Part shown: positions 36,611 to 45,414 of the stretch, in pieces
How the letters are laid out: each line of letters starts with the position of its first letter
How positions within the stretch are numbered: position 1 is the stretch's first letter
DNA from: Bdellovibrio bacteriovorus HD100
GTDB taxonomy: Bacteria; Bdellovibrionota; Bdellovibrionia; Bdellovibrionales; Bdellovibrionaceae
Length of the DNA stretch: 64,000 bases
NCBI RefSeq assembly: GCF_000196175.1
Contig: NC_005363.1
Span: 2,604,001-2,668,000 of the forward strand
Reading direction: 5' to 3'
The notes under the pieces: model-generated
What the model was told of the DNA's origin: nothing
What the model saw: the letters and a program-made list of their open reading frames with translations, nothing else
Database searches by the model: none
Translations under genes and position numbers: made by a program

Positions 36611-37381
36611 ATGAAGAATTTCCTGAAGAAACCCAACGAAAAAATCTTTGGCTTACGATCTCTGGATCGTGACACTTTGATTTTCCGTGTGCTGCCGCGT
36701 TTTCTGCTGGAGATCCTGCGCAAGTACTTCCGGCTGGAGATTGAGGGTGTTGAAAACATCCCGCGCCGCGGGGCCGTGATCCTGGCCCCCAATCACTCGG
36801 GTTACACCGGTTTTGATGCCTTCTTGCTGGGCCACGTGGTGCAACAAGAAGCCAAACGCATTCCCCGCGTGCTGACACATCACTTTTGGTTTCTGACCGA
36901 AACGACCGCCATCCCTGCGAACAAAATGGGTTTCACCGAAGCCACTTATGAAAACGGCATCAATGCGCTGAAAAAAGGAAATGCGATTGTTTTGTTCCCG
37001 GAAGGCGAACAGGGCAACTTCAAACCCACGACCGAACGCTATCAGCTGCAGGAATTCAAGCGGGGCTTTGTGCGTATGGCCCTGGAAGCCCAGTGCCCGA
37101 TTGTTCCGGTGGTGATCTTAGGTGCCGAAGAAACTCATATTAATTTGAAAAAGCTCAAATTCACCAAGTTCTTGAAGGGCTCGGTGATTCCTTTGCCTTT
37201 GAACGTAATTCCCCTGCCCGCCAAGTGGCGCATTCGCTTCCTCGAACCAATCACTCTGCCCTACAAGCCATCGGCCGTAGACGACGCGGATCTGGTTCAC
37301 GAAATCGCGCAAGACATCCAGGAACGGATGCAAACTGCGGTTGAGGAAGAAATCCAAAAACGCGGCAACGCTTTCCTTTGA
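36611..37381 (+). CDS. Lysophospholipid/glycerolipid acyltransferase (PlsC-like)
   Basis: 256 residues from ATG 36611; no good ribosome binding site is seen. Acyltransferase domain: APNHSGYTGFDAF (residues 59-71) is the NHSGYxxxD variant, with six rather than four residues between His and Asp, known in a subfamily of 1-acyl-glycerol-phosphate acyltransferase-like proteins; LFPEGEQGN (about 134-142) is the substrate phosphate motif. Probably acylates a lysolipid at the inner membrane. Divergent from glpK with 27 bases between start codons. Confidence 0.88.
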   Translation: MKNFLKKPNEKIFGLRSLDRDTLIFRVLPRFLLEILRKYFRLEIEGVENIPRRGAVILAPNHSGYTGFDAFLLGHVVQQEAKRIPRVLTHHFWFLTETTAIPANKMGFTEATYENGINALKKGNAIVLFPEGEQGNFKPTTERYQLQEFKRGFVRMALEAQCPIVPVVILGAEETHINLKKLKFTKFLKGSVIPLPLNVIPLPAKWRIRFLEPITLPYKPSAVDDADLVHEIAQDIQERMQTAVEEEIQKRGNAFL

Positions 37382-37398
37382 TTTGAAAATTTTCGGGT

Positions 37399-37578
37399 TT
37401 ACTTCTTATCAGGCAAGTCATCAGCGATGACTTGTAAGATATTCTGCCATTTCGCCACGAGGATGCCTTCATTGCCTTCTTCCCGACTGACAAGTCGGCT
37501 TACCAGCAAAGCAGCAAGACTGACGGCTAGGACGAGGAGGAGCACGTACTCCACCACGATTTGACCTCGTTTATTCAT
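37399..37578 (-). CDS. Short pilin-like / TadE-like membrane peptide with class III-type leader
   Basis: 59 residues, MNKRGQIVVEYVLLLVLAVS at the N-terminus. A short basic leader ending in Gly, then QIVVEY and a hydrophobic helix of about 20 residues, is the Flp pilin/TadE-type prepilin pattern with Glu at +5 (cleavage after Gly5). The C-terminal 28 residues are soluble (REEGNEGILVAKWQNILQVI). TGATACAAT lies 8 bases before the ATG like an extended -10, and no ribosome binding site is seen, which would fit a leaderless message. Located alone between the acyltransferase and the gene at 37592. No tad genes nearby. Confidence 0.6.
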   Translation of the reverse strand: MNKRGQIVVEYVLLLVLAVSLAALLVSRLVSREEGNEGILVAKWQNILQVIADDLPDKK

Positions 37579-39943: not shown

Positions 39944-39980
39944 TAAAAAGCCGGAGTGCTGTCAGACACTCCGGCTTTTC
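39944..39980 (-). terminator. Rho-independent terminator of the pilin/EF-hand operon
   Basis: On the minus strand AAAAGCCGGAGTG pairs with CACTCCGGCTTTT and continues in T. Lies 22 bases after the EF-hand gene. Confidence 0.9.
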
Positions 39981-40001: not shown

Positions 40002-41156
40002 TTATTTCATTTTTGGCGAGAACCAAAGGTCGATCACACGACCTTCTTTCTTTTTGCCTTTTTCAACAAAGACGAAAGTGCTCTTTTCACGAATCTGGGC
40101 ACGGTCCGCGATGCCACTCACTGCCGAGTCATCATATTTCAGGGACACGGATTCAATGCGGGATTTCAGCGGTACAAGCTCGCCTTTTTGCACTTTACCA
40201 TCGCCGTTTTTATCAAACCACAGCGAAAGTTTTGCAAAGTCCTTGTCGTTTTTATCGATCACATTGTCTTTGTTCGAATCAAACTCACGCAAGGCTTCAA
40301 AACCGTTTTTAAACTTGTCTCCCTGATTCCCAAACAGTTCATCTTCCGTTGTGATCTGACCATCACCATTGCGGTCCACCGCAATGAAGGCCCCCGGTGC
40401 ACCGGCTTCAGGCCACATGGTCTTGCCCGTTGGATTCAGTGGGAAGTCCGTCACCGCCGTGAAGTTTGGCATCTTTTCATCGAAGAACACCATCAGAGGT
40501 GAGAAGTATCCGCCGCAATAGCCATTCTCACCCGGGAAGAAGGCGGACACACTGTATTGTTTGCCGTCTTTGGAGTTGCTGGTGTAAACGGACGCTGACA
40601 GCGGACCATTGTAACCCATGTATGCACCGCCCTGCTTTTGGCCCGGCGCAAATACCTGGTCAAAGCTGACGGCTTCAAGCTTGGCTTCAAAGTCATTGGA
40701 GATATTACCTTCTTCATCCACGGTCGTGGTGAAGTTCACCGGAAGGATCACACGCACGCTGTTACCAGCATACTGAGCTTTGACCCCGGCCGTGACGTCC
40801 GAAACCTGCGTCACCTGTGCGTCGTTACCCGCTTGGGTCACGACATTGGCCGGATACTTCACGGTGTATGTTTTAAGTGCGCCCTTTTCCCGCAAGGTCA
40901 GCTTTACTAACACGCTTGAAACCGGCGAAAGTGGGTTGGAAACGTGTCGCAGATTTGTACCGAAACACGTGTTGGAAATATTCACAGTAATTCCATCGAC
41001 CGAAGCCCTGGCGGCTTGGCCGGAAAGAACAACCCCTTGAAAACCTGCTGAGCCCCCGGCTCCCGAATTCACGGCTGCAGGCTGTTGTTCAGTCTGTGCA
41101 TTCGCAGTGGATGACACCACCATGGCTGTTGCACAAGCCCATCTTAACCAAAACAT
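40002..41156 (-). CDS. Secreted protein with three EF-hand calcium loops
   Basis: 384 residues. Signal peptide ends near STANA (residue 20). Residues about 40-250 are beta-rich (LVKLTLREKGALKTYTVKY; VRVILPVNFTTTVDEEG) with three Cys. Three EF-type loops follow: DRNGDGQITTED (261-272), DSNKDNVIDKND (293-304) and DKNGDGKVQKGE (315-326), a cluster of Ca2+ sites. It is the last gene of the four-gene prepilin operon (24 bases after the PilW-like gene), a position where type IV pilus systems often encode the calcium-binding tip adhesin PilY1. It has no PilY1 propeller, so a PilY1-like role is inference. Confidence 0.85.
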   Translation of the reverse strand: MFWLRWACATAMVVSSTANAQTEQQPAAVNSGAGGSAGFQGVVLSGQAARASVDGITVNISNTCFGTNLRHVSNPLSPVSSVLVKLTLREKGALKTYTVKYPANVVTQAGNDAQVTQVSDVTAGVKAQYAGNSVRVILPVNFTTTVDEEGNISNDFEAKLEAVSFDQVFAPGQKQGGAYMGYNGPLSASVYTSNSKDGKQYSVSAFFPGENGYCGGYFSPLMVFFDEKMPNFTAVTDFPLNPTGKTMWPEAGAPGAFIAVDRNGDGQITTEDELFGNQGDKFKNGFEALREFDSNKDNVIDKNDKDFAKLSLWFDKNGDGKVQKGELVPLKSRIESVSLKYDDSAVSGIADRAQIREKSTFVFVEKGKKKEGRVIDLWFSPKMK

Positions 41157-41180
41157 ACAAGCCCCCTTTTGGTTTCCCTT

Positions 41181-42158
41181 TTATTTCTTATCCTTGCGCA
41201 CGATTTTGAAATAAATCAAAGCATCGTGTGCACTTTTTCTGGAAAACTCCACTTTCGCAACATCCGATGCGAAGAGCTGTCCAGGGCCAAACGTGCGACC
41301 GGTGTACATTGACCGATACACATTGACCGTATCCCCCTTGGAATCCTTCTGTAGATAATACTTGATAATACTGACAACTTTCAAGCGCACCAAAGGGGCG
41401 GCGCCTCCCATTGGCGGTATATCCCTTAAGAACTTATCTTCATCACCGATTGTCTCAGATGGATACATCGGATTGGTGGTGTTGATGAAGCCCGGGATAT
41501 TCAAAGGTAACAAACGTGTGGCCCCCGGCGCCTGCACACTGCCCAGGAAAATCGGTGATCTGGCCGGTTTACTATAGTCCGGACCCGATGCCGTCATCTG
41601 ACGAACCATGGTTGGTGTGTCCAGCATAAGGACATTGCCCACCTGCCAGAAGCGGCCCAACCCTTGAGGATCGGAAAACTGCACGATGCTGTCCTTATTC
41701 AATGAAACAAACGTCAACGAAGCCGCCACAAACGGATCACCGGGTGGTGTCCCGACTTGATAGGCGTTCGATGGAGCATACATCATCGAACCGCCCATTT
41801 TCTCATTGGTCGCGATAAAGATAAATTCGTTGCGGCGACCCGCTTCAAGCGTCAATTTTCTGGGCGCATTGTCCACTGCGGACTGGGTCACATCGGGAAC
41901 ATAGTCAAAGAACTGACGGCCATTGTCGTCAGTGATAATAACGTTATTAAATGATGGCTCGGAATACTTCAGATCCCGCAGAATCATTCGCTCTGCCAGG
42001 ATATTGTCGACCTTGTCTTCGATCTCGTTTGTAATTTCTTTTTTAGTCTTTGCAGTAAAGACAAAGAAAGACGCCGCGACCATCCCCATGATCCCCATGA
42101 GGGCCACACCGACAATCATCTCTGCTAAAGTTAAACCGCGATTGTTCTTGATCATCAT
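41181..42158 (-). CDS. Prepilin-like protein (PilW/GspJ type)
   Basis: 325 residues. N-terminus MMIKNNRGLTLAEMIVGVAL: short basic leader, Gly8, then LTLAE with Glu at +5 and a hydrophobic helix, the class III signal processed by prepilin peptidase. The long C-terminal domain is beta-rich. Overlaps the preceding prepilin gene by 4 bases. Size and order fit a minor pilin of the PilW/GspJ kind in a type IV pilus or type II-like priming complex. Confidence 0.88.
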   Translation of the reverse strand: MMIKNNRGLTLAEMIVGVALMGIMGMVAASFFVFTAKTKKEITNEIEDKVDNILAERMILRDLKYSEPSFNNVIITDDNGRQFFDYVPDVTQSAVDNAPRKLTLEAGRRNEFIFIATNEKMGGSMMYAPSNAYQVGTPPGDPFVAASLTFVSLNKDSIVQFSDPQGLGRFWQVGNVLMLDTPTMVRQMTASGPDYSKPARSPIFLGSVQAPGATRLLPLNIPGFINTTNPMYPSETIGDEDKFLRDIPPMGGAAPLVRLKVVSIIKYYLQKDSKGDTVNVYRSMYTGRTFGPGQLFASDVAKVEFSRKSAHDALIYFKIVRKDKK

Positions 42159-42643
42159 TGTGAGTTCACCACGAATTGATAGTCCACATAACCATAAGAC
42201 TTGGCATCTCCCGCCACAGCCGCTTTTTCACCTTGCGCCCAGTCCCGGTGGGTCAGACGCACGGTCACCAAATACAACCCTTTCATACCCGGATAGGCCT
42301 GAATCACAAATCCGTAGCGCCCAGGGCAACCCGGGCAGTCTTTCGCCGTCGACATCATGCCATTTCCCCAAGCCATTGGCAGATCACCAGGATTCAAGGC
42401 GTTTTCACGCTCTTTGTCGGAGGTGAAATAGTTGATCTGGTACATACGCACATTCGGACGGATATTTTCGATCACGTCATTGATTTGTTTGTACAGCGAG
42501 TTTTTGGTGCCACTGTCCATGGCGACCTTCTTCATACTCAGAATCCCTGAGATAAAGAACGACCCCACCAGCGTGATCATCGCCAGACCCAGCAGAACTT
42601 CCAGAATGGACATACCCTTTTGGTTTGATGCTATTTTCATCAT
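42155..42643 (-). CDS. Prepilin-like protein (PilV/GspI type)
   Basis: 162 residues. MMKIASNQKGMSILEVLLGL gives leader, Gly10, MSILE with Glu at +5 and a hydrophobic helix. A CPGCPGR motif in the globular part may form a local disulfide. Overlaps both neighbours by 4 bases. Likely a minor pilin. Confidence 0.88.
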   Translation of the reverse strand: MMKIASNQKGMSILEVLLGLAMITLVGSFFISGILSMKKVAMDSGTKNSLYKQINDVIENIRPNVRMYQINYFTSDKERENALNPGDLPMAWGNGMMSTAKDCPGCPGRYGFVIQAYPGMKGLYLVTVRLTHRDWAQGEKAAVAGDAKSYGYVDYQFVVNSQ

Positions 42644-45414
42644 ATGCCGGACTCCCTGGAGACTTCGAGAACATAGAATCTCATCAGACGATTTTTACAC
42701 ATCGTCGAGTTGCTGTTATTGATCAGACCGCAATCCGGGTCCACCGCAGTCCAGCGGAATGGATCGGCCTTGGCACGCAATGACAGCGAATTACATTTAT
42801 ACAGATTCGAAACATCACGCATGCTTGGATACGGATGCCATACCGGATAACGGTTGATGGTCGTACAATCCTGCGCGTTCAGGCCTTTCAAAATCCCCGA
42901 TTGACGAAGCTCAAACGTCGCCATTGGATGATAGATTGTGCTCCACACGATACCGTGCTTATAGGCTTGCTCGTCAATTTCTATCCCCTGAGAAACAATA
43001 ATACTGCCAATGATTCTCAACTTAGACGAGCGGCTGCGAATCACGAGTTTTTCACAGTTCAAGAACCCAGAAACCAGATTCGCTGAAGACTCAATGATAC
43101 AGGTCTTCGCCATCGAAACAACATGGAACACCGCGGTCCCCATTCCGCCCGGAGGTGCATAGGCATTGCCCCCATCAAGGATCAAATCCTTGCGATCTTC
43201 ATACTTGTTGGTAAAGGACCAAGAGTGTTTGGAGTTTGGCGCAAAGGACTTGGACCAGTCCGTTCCTGCGAAGGCTGACGTGTTGGTACCCAAAGTTTTA
43301 CAAGCCAGATCCAGATTCACGTAAGGATCTTCCCCTTCCGGCAAGCCTCCTTTGGACTGTCCACGGGAATCCAGAAGAGTTTGCGACACATCAAAGCCAC
43401 CACCATCCGGATTAAACACCAAAGCTCCGCGGTTGTTATTGGACCACGGACGCATGGAGTAACCTTTATAGTAGGCCACATCAAAGGCTTCAAATTCGAA
43501 GGACACCGGAATGCGGTCCCCGTTGGAGTTCACCAGCACATGGCCGTTTTCAAATTTGATTTCCAAATCTTTGAACGACGCATTGGTGTTTTCCGGATTG
43601 TCGCCCGCTTTCACCGGATTCTTCATGGTGATATTGATTTTAGGCTGAATGCCCATATTTGAGCGCACTTCACTCAAGTTGCCGCGCAATTCAGACACGC
43701 GCTTTTCTGAGTTTTCCACCTGTTGTTCTTGGCGGTTCTTTTCTGCTTCCGCATTTCTCAAGTCATTCTGGGCATTATTCAAATTATAACGAGCTTGCGA
43801 CACGCGGGCCGGATCGGCTGGCACACGGTTGCGCGCCCGTTCCAGATCATCTTCAGCTTCGTTAACATCACGACGGGCTCTTTCGACTGCGCGGGCGGCC
43901 TGATTCAGGTCGCGACGGGCGTCATCCAAGCCGGCTTCCGCAGCACTCAACTGGCGTTCGATGCTTCTTTCCAAAGGACGAAGGTCAATTTTTGGCTCCA
44001 GGGTCACGGTTCCGTCCAAAGGGACCTCCCCTTCGACTTCCAGATTTCCAAAACGCATTTTAAATTTACTGACCGGCGTTGCACGGCTGGTCAATCCCCA
44101 GTCCTTCAAAAGGTCACTGGAGAAGAAGTTCCGTACCGTCGGTTTATCAACCTCTTTGGTTTGCGGATTGAACAAGTTTCCGTCCGTCAATGCCAGGCGA
44201 TAATTGTACTTGCTGCCGCTTTTGCTTAACAGCGCACCCGTCAACTGACTGTTCGCGGTGGTGTTCAGATTGTATTTGCGATCCTCGTGACGTTTACACA
44301 GCGCCATCAGGTTCGCGTTGGGGTTTCCAGCCCCTGTCGCATAGCCGGACAAATAATCCAGCCCCAAGTCACGCTCTCCGTCGACTTCAACCCCTTTTTG
44401 GAATCCACCAAACTGACGGATATTAGACCAGAACTGATCGACCTGATTTCCCGCGGAACGCGGTCGAAATTCAACATTTTCACGTTTGATAGGACCATAA
44501 CCCAGAATGACTTTGTCTTTGAAAGTGACTGGCGTATAGACCGTATCACCTTCAGCAATATCCACCGCCAGATCCGGAGCTTTTGGCAAATGAATAGCAC
44601 CATTTACAAACACCGGAGACTCAAAAGTGAGCCCTGGATATTTGATAGTTTGTTCACGGGAACCATGTTGTTTGAAGTAAGCCCCGCCAACCCCAAGATC
44701 GGATGCGGATTCTTTGTCCAGACGCAAGTCTCCGGCCACGAGCAAAGCAAAACTTCCCACTTCACGCGGGTACACACCAACAAAGGATGTTGTTTCAAGC
44801 TTGCTGGATCCAACTTCAATGACCTTCTTCTGACTATTCAAAAGTCTCACGACAACTTTAAGATAGACCTCACGGCCATACTCGGGAATCGCCGCGCGCA
44901 CATCACGTGTGATTTGAATTTGAATGAACTCAACTGTATAACCCTTCAAATCAGCCACGATCTTGTAAACCGGGTGCATGGTTGAAAAGTTCGCCAGGTT
45001 AATTTCCTGACTGATCCCATCTTCCAACGGCACTTTTTCAGGATTCGCAATCCCGATCGCACGCAGGAAATCCACGGACTCCTGCTTCATCAACAGGCGC
45101 TCGACCGAGCGCGGGTGACTCAAAATTTCAACAGCCTTCGGTGGTGTGCTGGCACCGCAGCTTTCCTGCATCCAGGATTCAGAAAAACACCAGCGCTGAC
45201 GGATACCGAAAAGTGTGTAGTCCACCATCGAATGCAGCGCCAAACGTGCGGTGATGATCGACGCGGTCTTGGTCACCTGACTGCGATGTTTGATAACGGT
45301 AGGAGAAAGGAAGTAAATCATCACGCCGACAACGCCCACAGCCACAAGGGCTTGGACGAAGGCACTTCCTCGATTGTTTAAGACGGAACGTCCCATTGAT
45401 CTGCAAGATTTCAC
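42640..45414 (-). CDS. Giant prepilin-like protein with internal coiled coil
   Basis: 924 residues from GTG 45414 (GGGAG upstream). Leader to Gly16 (NNRG), then SAFVQALVAVGVVGVMIYFL: a prepilin-type helix lacking Glu at +5, as in PilX/GspK tip pilins. It is several times the size of normal minor pilins. Residues about 481-586 form a charged coiled coil (ERSIERQLSAAEAGLDDARR and so on). The C-terminal 300 residues hold many Cys (for example DLACKTLGT, DCTTINRYP, DPDCGLINN, STMCKNR). First gene of the operon; overlaps the PilV-like gene by 4 bases. I infer a tip pilin fused to an adhesive or ruler module. Confidence 0.85.
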   Translation of the reverse strand: MKSCRSMGRSVLNNRGSAFVQALVAVGVVGVMIYFLSPTVIKHRSQVTKTASIITARLALHSMVDYTLFGIRQRWCFSESWMQESCGASTPPKAVEILSHPRSVERLLMKQESVDFLRAIGIANPEKVPLEDGISQEINLANFSTMHPVYKIVADLKGYTVEFIQIQITRDVRAAIPEYGREVYLKVVVRLLNSQKKVIEVGSSKLETTSFVGVYPREVGSFALLVAGDLRLDKESASDLGVGGAYFKQHGSREQTIKYPGLTFESPVFVNGAIHLPKAPDLAVDIAEGDTVYTPVTFKDKVILGYGPIKRENVEFRPRSAGNQVDQFWSNIRQFGGFQKGVEVDGERDLGLDYLSGYATGAGNPNANLMALCKRHEDRKYNLNTTANSQLTGALLSKSGSKYNYRLALTDGNLFNPQTKEVDKPTVRNFFSSDLLKDWGLTSRATPVSKFKMRFGNLEVEGEVPLDGTVTLEPKIDLRPLERSIERQLSAAEAGLDDARRDLNQAARAVERARRDVNEAEDDLERARNRVPADPARVSQARYNLNNAQNDLRNAEAEKNRQEQQVENSEKRVSELRGNLSEVRSNMGIQPKINITMKNPVKAGDNPENTNASFKDLEIKFENGHVLVNSNGDRIPVSFEFEAFDVAYYKGYSMRPWSNNNRGALVFNPDGGGFDVSQTLLDSRGQSKGGLPEGEDPYVNLDLACKTLGTNTSAFAGTDWSKSFAPNSKHSWSFTNKYEDRKDLILDGGNAYAPPGGMGTAVFHVVSMAKTCIIESSANLVSGFLNCEKLVIRSRSSKLRIIGSIIVSQGIEIDEQAYKHGIVWSTIYHPMATFELRQSGILKGLNAQDCTTINRYPVWHPYPSMRDVSNLYKCNSLSLRAKADPFRWTAVDPDCGLINNSNSTMCKNRLMRFYVLEVSRESGI

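What the first reader, a model, noticed from the sequence alone, without database searches (positions are those of the whole stretch)
40002..45414. Minor-pilin operon with a giant coiled-coil tip pilin and an EF-hand protein
Genes in order: 924-residue prepilin lacking Glu+5, PilV-like, PilW-like, secreted protein with three EF-hand loops, all overlapping or nearly so. Normal tip pilins are under 300 residues; this one carries a coiled coil of about 105 residues and a Cys-rich end. The EF-hand protein occupies the place of PilY1. This would be a non-canonical priming and adhesin complex, relevant since type IV pili are needed for prey entry in Bdellovibrio.
Basis: partly seen in the sequence, partly recalled or inferred. 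Interest (0 to 1): 0.6.

Follow-up and report, generated by a model that had tools for sequence, protein, structure and literature searches.

The report
Predatory bacterium's pilus-tip gene cassette
Four neighbouring genes in a bacterium that eats other bacteria most likely build a four-part tip for its grappling pilus; the same matched gene set recurs, sometimes in several versions per genome, among its relatives, and published screens tie it to attacking prey.

Summary
The four genes are real, on the - strand, at the stated coordinates. They are not unpublished: gene lengths match Bd2723-Bd2726 of B. bacteriovorus HD100. A 2025 paper models these proteins, and the paralogous Bd2209-Bd2212, as four-protein complexes without proposing a pilus role; published Tn-seq links genes of both operons to predation. 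Added here: (1) the large protein is a prepilin whose leader is lost in the 901-aa annotation; its coiled coil is a fast-changing two-helix hairpin set between conserved, cysteine-bearing regions; (2) the EF-hand protein is not PilY1-like: its C-terminal half is a FrpC-type Ca2+ self-processing module with Ser in place of the scissile Asp in 57 of 59 sequences, so probably Ca2+-folded but uncut; (3) the large protein occurs in 58 of 290 Bdellovibrionota genomes, with the EF-hand protein close by in 55 of the 58, and up to four cassettes per genome; (4) the four proteins co-evolve as matched sets, also against within-genome paralogues. Best reading: a dedicated pilus tip, most likely of the type IVa pilus. 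Tip location, machinery and Ca2+ binding are inferred. T4aP genes are near universal in the order and the cassette is not, so it is accessory.

The parts
42640..45414 (-). X: giant minor prepilin (Bd2726 by length and order; annotated as 901 aa)
45367..45414 (-). Prepilin leader of X, residues 1-16, outside the 901-aa annotation, which would start at GTG codon 24
   Evidence: the start at codon 24 is inferred from the length difference
43660..43980 (-). Two-helix hairpin of X, residues 479-585; the variable insert
42155..42643 (-). V: minor prepilin with Glu+5 (Bd2725)
41181..42158 (-). W: minor prepilin with Glu+5, GspJ/PilW-like in its N-terminal 64 residues (Bd2724)
40002..41156 (-). E: protein with an apparent signal peptide (not tested by a predictor) and EF-hand loops (Bd2723)
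40005..40499 (-). FrpC-type self-processing-module fold of E, residues 220-384; residue 219, at the scissile place, is Ser
40341..40376 (-). EF-hand loop 1 of E, residues 261-272
40245..40280 (-). EF-hand loop 2 of E, residues 293-304
40179..40214 (-). EF-hand loop 3 of E, residues 315-326
39946..39979 (.). Inverted repeat just past E, a possible terminator
   Evidence: scored as a + strand terminator-like site; the number of such sites in the region is not above shuffles (5 found, mean 6.4)

Best explanation
The operon encodes one dedicated four-protein tip for a type IV filament, most likely the type IVa pilus. X, V and W are minor prepilins: prepilin peptidase removes their leaders and their first helices bundle, with X at the far end (no Glu+5) and W and V below, starting the fibre. 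X carries a large head with nine conserved Cys, from which a two-helix hairpin, its fastest-changing part, projects. E is a separate exported protein that docks on X; its FrpC-type module folds on Ca2+ outside the cell but, without the scissile Asp, stays whole and serves as a Ca2+-dependent cap or adhesive part. Genomes hold one to four matched sets, so a cell can build different tips for prey attachment and entry. Shown here: the genes, leaders, co-evolution, conservation, the fold of E's C-terminal half (predicted model), the variable hairpin. Published by others: predicted complex, attack-phase expression, predation defects in Tn-seq. Inferred: tip location, use by the T4aP, Ca2+ binding, lack of cleavage, adhesion.
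For: Prepilin leaders kept in X, V and W. 53 of 57 complete cassettes in the order X-V-W-E, 4 as E-X-V-W. Tree distances correlate at 0.904-0.934 for X with V, W and E; 0 of 500 permutations, also when only paralogues within a genome are exchanged, reach this. E lies on the same contig within about 6 kb in 55 of 58 genomes with X. Others' AlphaFold-Multimer complex ipTM 0.837, with the largest protein as hub. Bd2726 required for predation; BD2210::tn (paralogous W) defective in attachment, killing and rounding; loss of predation reported for Bd2210, Bd2211, Bd2212 and Bd2723. T2SS and Tad have candidates of their own.
Against: T4aP marker PilM in 116 of 118 genomes of the order against X in about 33, so the cassette is not a general priming complex; at least two genomes of the same genus lack it (G072, G306). 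X has no detectable sequence match to GspK and its core was not compared by fold. V is not specifically GspI-like. Genes of both operons matter for predation, so the two tips are not simply interchangeable. Bd2726 is listed as a c-di-GMP pull-down protein, unexpected for an exported pilin. No data here place any of the proteins on a pilus. PilY1's absence has no positive control.
Confidence: 0.68

Rival explanations
1. The complex tips another filament of the same cell, the Tad (type IVb/Flp) pilus, like the Kil tips of Myxococcus.
For: Kil tips have the same plan: paralogous sets of minor pilins, the largest with a distal domain that includes two long helices and a beta-scaffold (PMC12075869 passages). 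That paper predicts a Bdellovibrio tip complex; its main text names no Bd2726 or Bd2212 and I could not see which genes it means. A Flp-like ORF lies about 2.4 kb from the operon.
Against: V and W carry the T4aP/T2SS-type leader with Glu+5; the genome's single PF13400 (Tad) hit is elsewhere, at 131997.
Confidence: 0.12
2. The complex caps an alternative T2SS pseudopilus or another periplasmic assembly rather than a surface pilus.
For: W matches the genome's own GspJ over 64 N-terminal columns (hhalign probability 96.6); Bd2725 is annotated as a type II secretion system protein.
Against: The T2SS has its own set of four, two of which match T2SSJ and T2SSK; attachment defect of the paralogue's W mutant.
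Confidence: 0.1
3. E is an active self-processing module that cuts itself and cross-links the tip to a target.
For: Much of the module is kept: Pro220, Trp248, Trp313 and Asp376 in 59 of 59 sequences; one sequence has Asp at the scissile place (L059).
Against: The scissile Asp, which forms the anhydride in FrpC (PMC7078468 passages), is Ser in 57 of 59; the place of Asp478 is Asp in 32 of 59; the place of Asp419, first ligand of FrpC's fourth Ca2+ site, is Phe in 52 of 59 (both places by alignment).
Confidence: 0.05

Closest known systems
Bd2723-Bd2726 and Bd2209-Bd2212 complexes (PMC12034629, 2025)
   Same: The same proteins by length and order, and the paralogous operon; predicted four-protein complexes, attack-phase expression, link to predation.
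   Different: There mostly 'hypothetical', X 901 aa, no pilus role proposed in the sections and passages I saw; 'pilin', 'calcium' and 'EF-hand' do not occur in its main text.
Minor-pilin priming and tip complexes: PilVWX-PilY1, GspHIJK
   Same: Several minor prepilins, the far one without Glu+5, plus in T4aP a non-pilin Ca2+-binding partner (PilY1; PMC13190605 passages).
   Different: X is about 920 aa with no match to GspK; the partner is a FrpC-type module, whereas PilY1's C-terminal domain is a seven-bladed beta-propeller with an EF-hand-like site.
Kil tips of Myxococcus (PMC12075869)
   Same: Several paralogous sets of minor pilins in a predator, the largest carrying a variable distal domain.
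   Different: Tad-type pilins; the passages and section I saw mention no E-like partner.
Self-processing module of FrpC, Neisseria meningitidis (6sjw, 6sjx)
   Same: Fold of E's C-terminal half: Z 19.3, 2.5 A over 154 residues, 29% identity; three EF-hand-like loops.
   Different: Scissile Asp replaced, fourth Ca2+ site apparently lost, no large RTX protein around it.
Modular pilins of Streptococcus sanguinis (PMC8179133, PMC9934059)
   Same: Minor pilins carrying an added module with a role in adhesion.
   Different: Different host and, as far as the start of the abstracts shows, different modules; seen in the search listing only.

Membership tests
Type IV minor-pilin tip or priming set (GspIJK / PilVWX-like) | Class III (prepilin) leader on each pilin | tested here: met
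   Cleavage-site Gly in 57 of 58 X, 57 of 57 V, 58 of 58 W; Pfam cut-off passed only by W
Type IV minor-pilin tip or priming set (GspIJK / PilVWX-like) | Distal pilin without Glu+5, the others with it | tested here: met
   X 0 of 58, V 57 of 57, W 58 of 58; that this marks the distal pilin is recalled
Type IV minor-pilin tip or priming set (GspIJK / PilVWX-like) | Homology of the pilins to PilV/PilW/PilX or GspI/J/K | tested here: inconclusive
   W-GspJ probability 96.6 over 64 columns; V-GspI 55, V-GspJ 90, V-GspH 88; X-GspK 1.1; single T2SS sequences only; PilVWX not compared
Type IV minor-pilin tip or priming set (GspIJK / PilVWX-like) | Location at the pilus tip | not testable with these tools
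   -
PilY1 | PF05567 beta-propeller domain in E | tested here: not met
   Pfam scan of E at E up to 10 lists EF-hand families and a weak dockerin only; modelled fold of its C-terminal half is FrpC-type
FrpC-type self-processing module | Fold and EF-hand-like loops | tested here: met
   Z 19.3; profile E 9.4e-26; loops
FrpC-type self-processing module | Scissile Asp-Pro at its start | tested here: not met
   Ser-Pro in 57 of 59, Asp-Pro in 1, Ala-Pro in 1
FrpC-type self-processing module | Ca2+-dependent folding and cleavage | not testable with these tools
   -
Tad/Kil tip | TadE/F/G-type pilins | tested here: inconclusive
   No Tad family among the Pfam matches of the four proteins (list of X capped at 25); single PF13400 hit of the genome at 131997; Kil proteins not compared directly

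The most novel reading that the evidence does not exclude
Bdellovibrionota arm a type IVa pilus with several matched tips: each cassette makes a self-contained three-pilin spearhead with a variable hairpin or spacer, capped by a dedicated protein built on a self-cleaving Ca2+ module that evolution has frozen in the uncut state. This would be a T4aP counterpart to the Kil tips of Myxococcus, with a new answer to what stands in for PilY1.
Probability: 0.42. Interest if true: 0.8.

Novelty: new variant of a known kind. Interest (0 to 1): 0.6.

Why it matters
How Bdellovibrio attaches to prey is called unknown in the Tn-seq paper (passage). This reading gives the predicted Bd2726 and Bd2212 complexes a concrete job, names the part that changes fastest (the hairpin) and the part that should depend on Ca2+ (E), and offers a reason why X went unrecognised (an annotated start inside the pilin helix). 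It would also mean that two distant predators, Myxococcus on Tad pili and Bdellovibrio probably on T4aP, use the same design of several matched tip sets.

Tried and rejected
Rejected: E as a PilY1 (FrpC-type module). Rejected: the missing Glu+5 as an anomaly (0 of 58). Rejected: X as a recognisable relative of the 847-aa X3 of the third operon (no match). Rejected: 79 of 290 as the count for X; 21 of the 79 are hits centred on the coiled-coil region with E of 1.7e-5 or worse, leaving 58. Likewise 2 of the 35 hits (G093, G099) cover only 84 and 33 residues, leaving about 33 of 118. In one search, 88 genomes match the E profile, but many hits cover only the module inside other proteins; the count of 55 uses hits with E of 6.2e-60 or better, and the list of matches there was cut at its weak end.

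The N-terminal domain of E has only weak matches (best Z 6.3). Promoter- and terminator-like sites are not above shuffles. A positive control for PilY1 was not obtained. The NC01 evolution paper (PMC9888234 passages) lists a mutated prepilin-type gene that I could not tie to this family. Supplementary files were not read, so I cannot say which genes PMC12075869 means by its Bdellovibrio tip.

Papers: PMC12034629 sections 17 and 24 and passages; PMC12075869 section 16 and passages; PMC6561027, PMC7078468, PMC13190605, PMC5430801, PMC3818213, PMC3271064, PMC2797640, PMC9888234 passages only; PMC8179133 and PMC9934059 search listing only. Recalled and from no call: that GspK and PilX lack Glu+5 and that this marks the distal pilin, the size of the HD100 genome, and the T4aP, T2SS and PilY1 gene names where no paper is cited.
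Full report
What is there. The window lies at 2604001-2668000 of a single-contig genome of 3,782,950 bases. Four - strand genes run from 45414 to 40002: X (924 aa), V (162), W (325), E (384). Order and lengths match Bd2726, Bd2725, Bd2724 and Bd2723 of Bdellovibrio bacteriovorus HD100: 162, 325 and 384 aa agree exactly, and X is given as 901 aa (PMC12034629 passages). The difference of 23 residues puts the annotated start at codon 24, a GTG, inside the first helix of the model (15-73) and after the prepilin cleavage site. In 58 of 58 aligned sequences at least four residues precede the cleavage position, which is Gly in 57, so the longer reading is the better one and X is a prepilin. Whether codon 1 (GTG) or codon 7 (ATG) is the start stays open.

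A second copy and a third relative in plan. The same genome holds a paralogous operon at about 2107364-2113059 (X 995 aa, V 153, W 328, E 418), which by length is Bd2212-Bd2209. A third giant-pilin operon at about 3741805-3745928 has an 847-aa protein followed by two prepilins of 167 and 359 aa; its large protein shows no match to X, E was found only at the other two operons, and the large protein occurs in 16 of 118 genomes of the order. A T2SS set with GspJ and GspK matches is at a separate place, and the genome's single Tad-domain hit is at 131997.

Distribution. X was found in 35 of 118 genomes of the order (two of these are poor hits) and in 79 of 290 of the phylum; 21 of the 79 are hits centred on the coiled-coil region, leaving 58. 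In 55 of the 58 a strong E lies on the same contig within about 6 kb. The other three (G239, G250, G252) are fragmented assemblies; G250 has a partial E at its contig end beside X. All genomes with such a strong E are among the 58. At least two genomes of the same genus (G072, G306) lack X. Named records with X include Bdellovibrio strains, Bdellovibrio sp. qaytius, and assemblies labelled Bacteriovorax or Bacteriovoracaceae. From the window and fetched order-level loci I read 58 cassettes: 57 hold all four genes, 53 in the order X-V-W-E and 4 as E-X-V-W; one (L047) lacks a detected V. One genome (G068) has four, and in G055, G078 and G090 two stand in tandem.

One unit. Distances in trees of the 57 complete cassettes correlate at 0.904 (X-V), 0.934 (X-W) and 0.917 (X-E); 0 of 500 permutations reach these values, and 0 of 500 when only cassettes inside one genome are exchanged (20 genomes with two or three complete cassettes, 12 with one). 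E thus belongs to its own X. This agrees with the published AlphaFold-Multimer models (ipTM 0.837 and 0.852), which others made and I did not repeat.

Anatomy of X. Leader, first helix (15-73), mixed regions, a hairpin of two helices (479-528 and 535-585), then a conserved C-terminal part. Nine Cys are present in 58 of 58 sequences. The segment from 472 to 596 is 20 residues or fewer in 13 of 58, 21-100 in 3, 101-140 in 21 and longer in 21; in two of the long ones printed, spacers rich in Ser/Pro/Thr or Gly/Thr interrupt it. Among 42 sequences with a long insert, mean pairwise identity is 22% in the insert against 42% and 50% in the flanking regions. The hairpin resembles the receptor-binding hairpin of E colicins (Z 12.8), but such hairpins are common and I draw no relation from it.

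Anatomy of E. The model (mean pLDDT 82) has a low-confidence start (1-49), strands at 48-209 with weak Ig-like matches, and at 220-384 the fold of the FrpC self-processing module: Z 19.3, 2.5 A over 154 residues, 29% identity, profile E-value 9.4e-26. FrpC is cut at Asp414-Pro415 on Ca2+ binding, through an anhydride of that Asp (PMC7078468 passages). Model residue 220 aligns with chain residue 1, which I take as Pro415. Pro220 is present in 59 of 59 E sequences; the residue before it is Ser in 57, Asp in one and Ala in one. Trp248, Trp313 and Asp376, the likely equivalents of Trp451, Trp519 and Asp579, are in 59 of 59; the place of Asp478 is Asp in 32; the place of Asp419, first ligand of FrpC's fourth Ca2+ site, is Phe in 52. 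Loop 2 is canonical in 59, loop 3 in 54, loop 1 in 33. The 59 include this E and one protein with no X of its own (L045:8022-9368, the one with Ala). I conclude that E has probably kept Ca2+-dependent folding and lost self-cleavage; neither was measured.

Function. The Tn-seq paper names Bd2726 among genes required for predation and reports a BD2210::tn mutant (W of the paralogue) defective in attachment, killing and rounding (passages). The 2025 paper adds attack-phase expression of both operons and cites loss of predation for Bd2210, Bd2211, Bd2212 and Bd2723. With X, V and W being prepilins, and T2SS and Tad having candidates of their own, the type IVa pilus is the likeliest user. Against a general need stands PilM in 116 of 118 genomes of the order compared with X in about 33: other genomes must start their pili differently. 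Since genes of both operons are reported as needed, the two tips probably do different jobs and are not simply interchangeable.

PilY1. PF05567 matched 0 of 1, 0 of 118 and 0 of 290 genomes, but none of the 14 control genomes rang either, so absence is likely, not shown.

Novelty. The operon and its predicted complex are in print. The searches showed me no paper that reads these proteins as pilus tips, and 'self-processing module' with 'pilus' gave 0 papers. Two limits: only open-licence papers are held, and PMC12075869 predicts a Bdellovibrio tip complex whose genes I could not identify; Bd2212 and Bd2726 do not occur in its main text. Hence 'new variant of a known kind'.

Noticed in passing
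window about 37350-37566, - strand: Small ORF with a Flp-pilin motif (G....EY and a hydrophobic run), about 2.4 kb from the operon; probably the 'bd4000' flp gene that PMC5430801 places in the bd2719-bd2720 region (passage).
   Followed up: partly
G000:C1 3741805-3745928 (L040:3806-7929): Third giant-pilin operon (847 + 167 + 359 aa), with no match of its large protein to X; in one relative (G028) the large gene is broken by a stop codon and a frame change.
   Followed up: partly
G000:C1 about 234407-236005 (L041:6408-8006): Two more adjacent pilin-like genes of 207 and 324 aa; the first passes Pfam's N_methyl cut-off.
   Followed up: no
Bd2726 (window 42640-45414): Listed among c-di-GMP pull-down proteins required for predation (PMC6561027 passage), hard to square with an exported pilin.
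   Followed up: no
Bdellovibrionota genomes, for example G165:C12:70489-71013: FrpC-type modules also occur inside many other proteins of the phylum, one in an open frame of 5987 aa.
   Followed up: no
L059:1585-2832: The one E whose aligned scissile position is Asp-Pro; possibly a natural active form.
   Followed up: no
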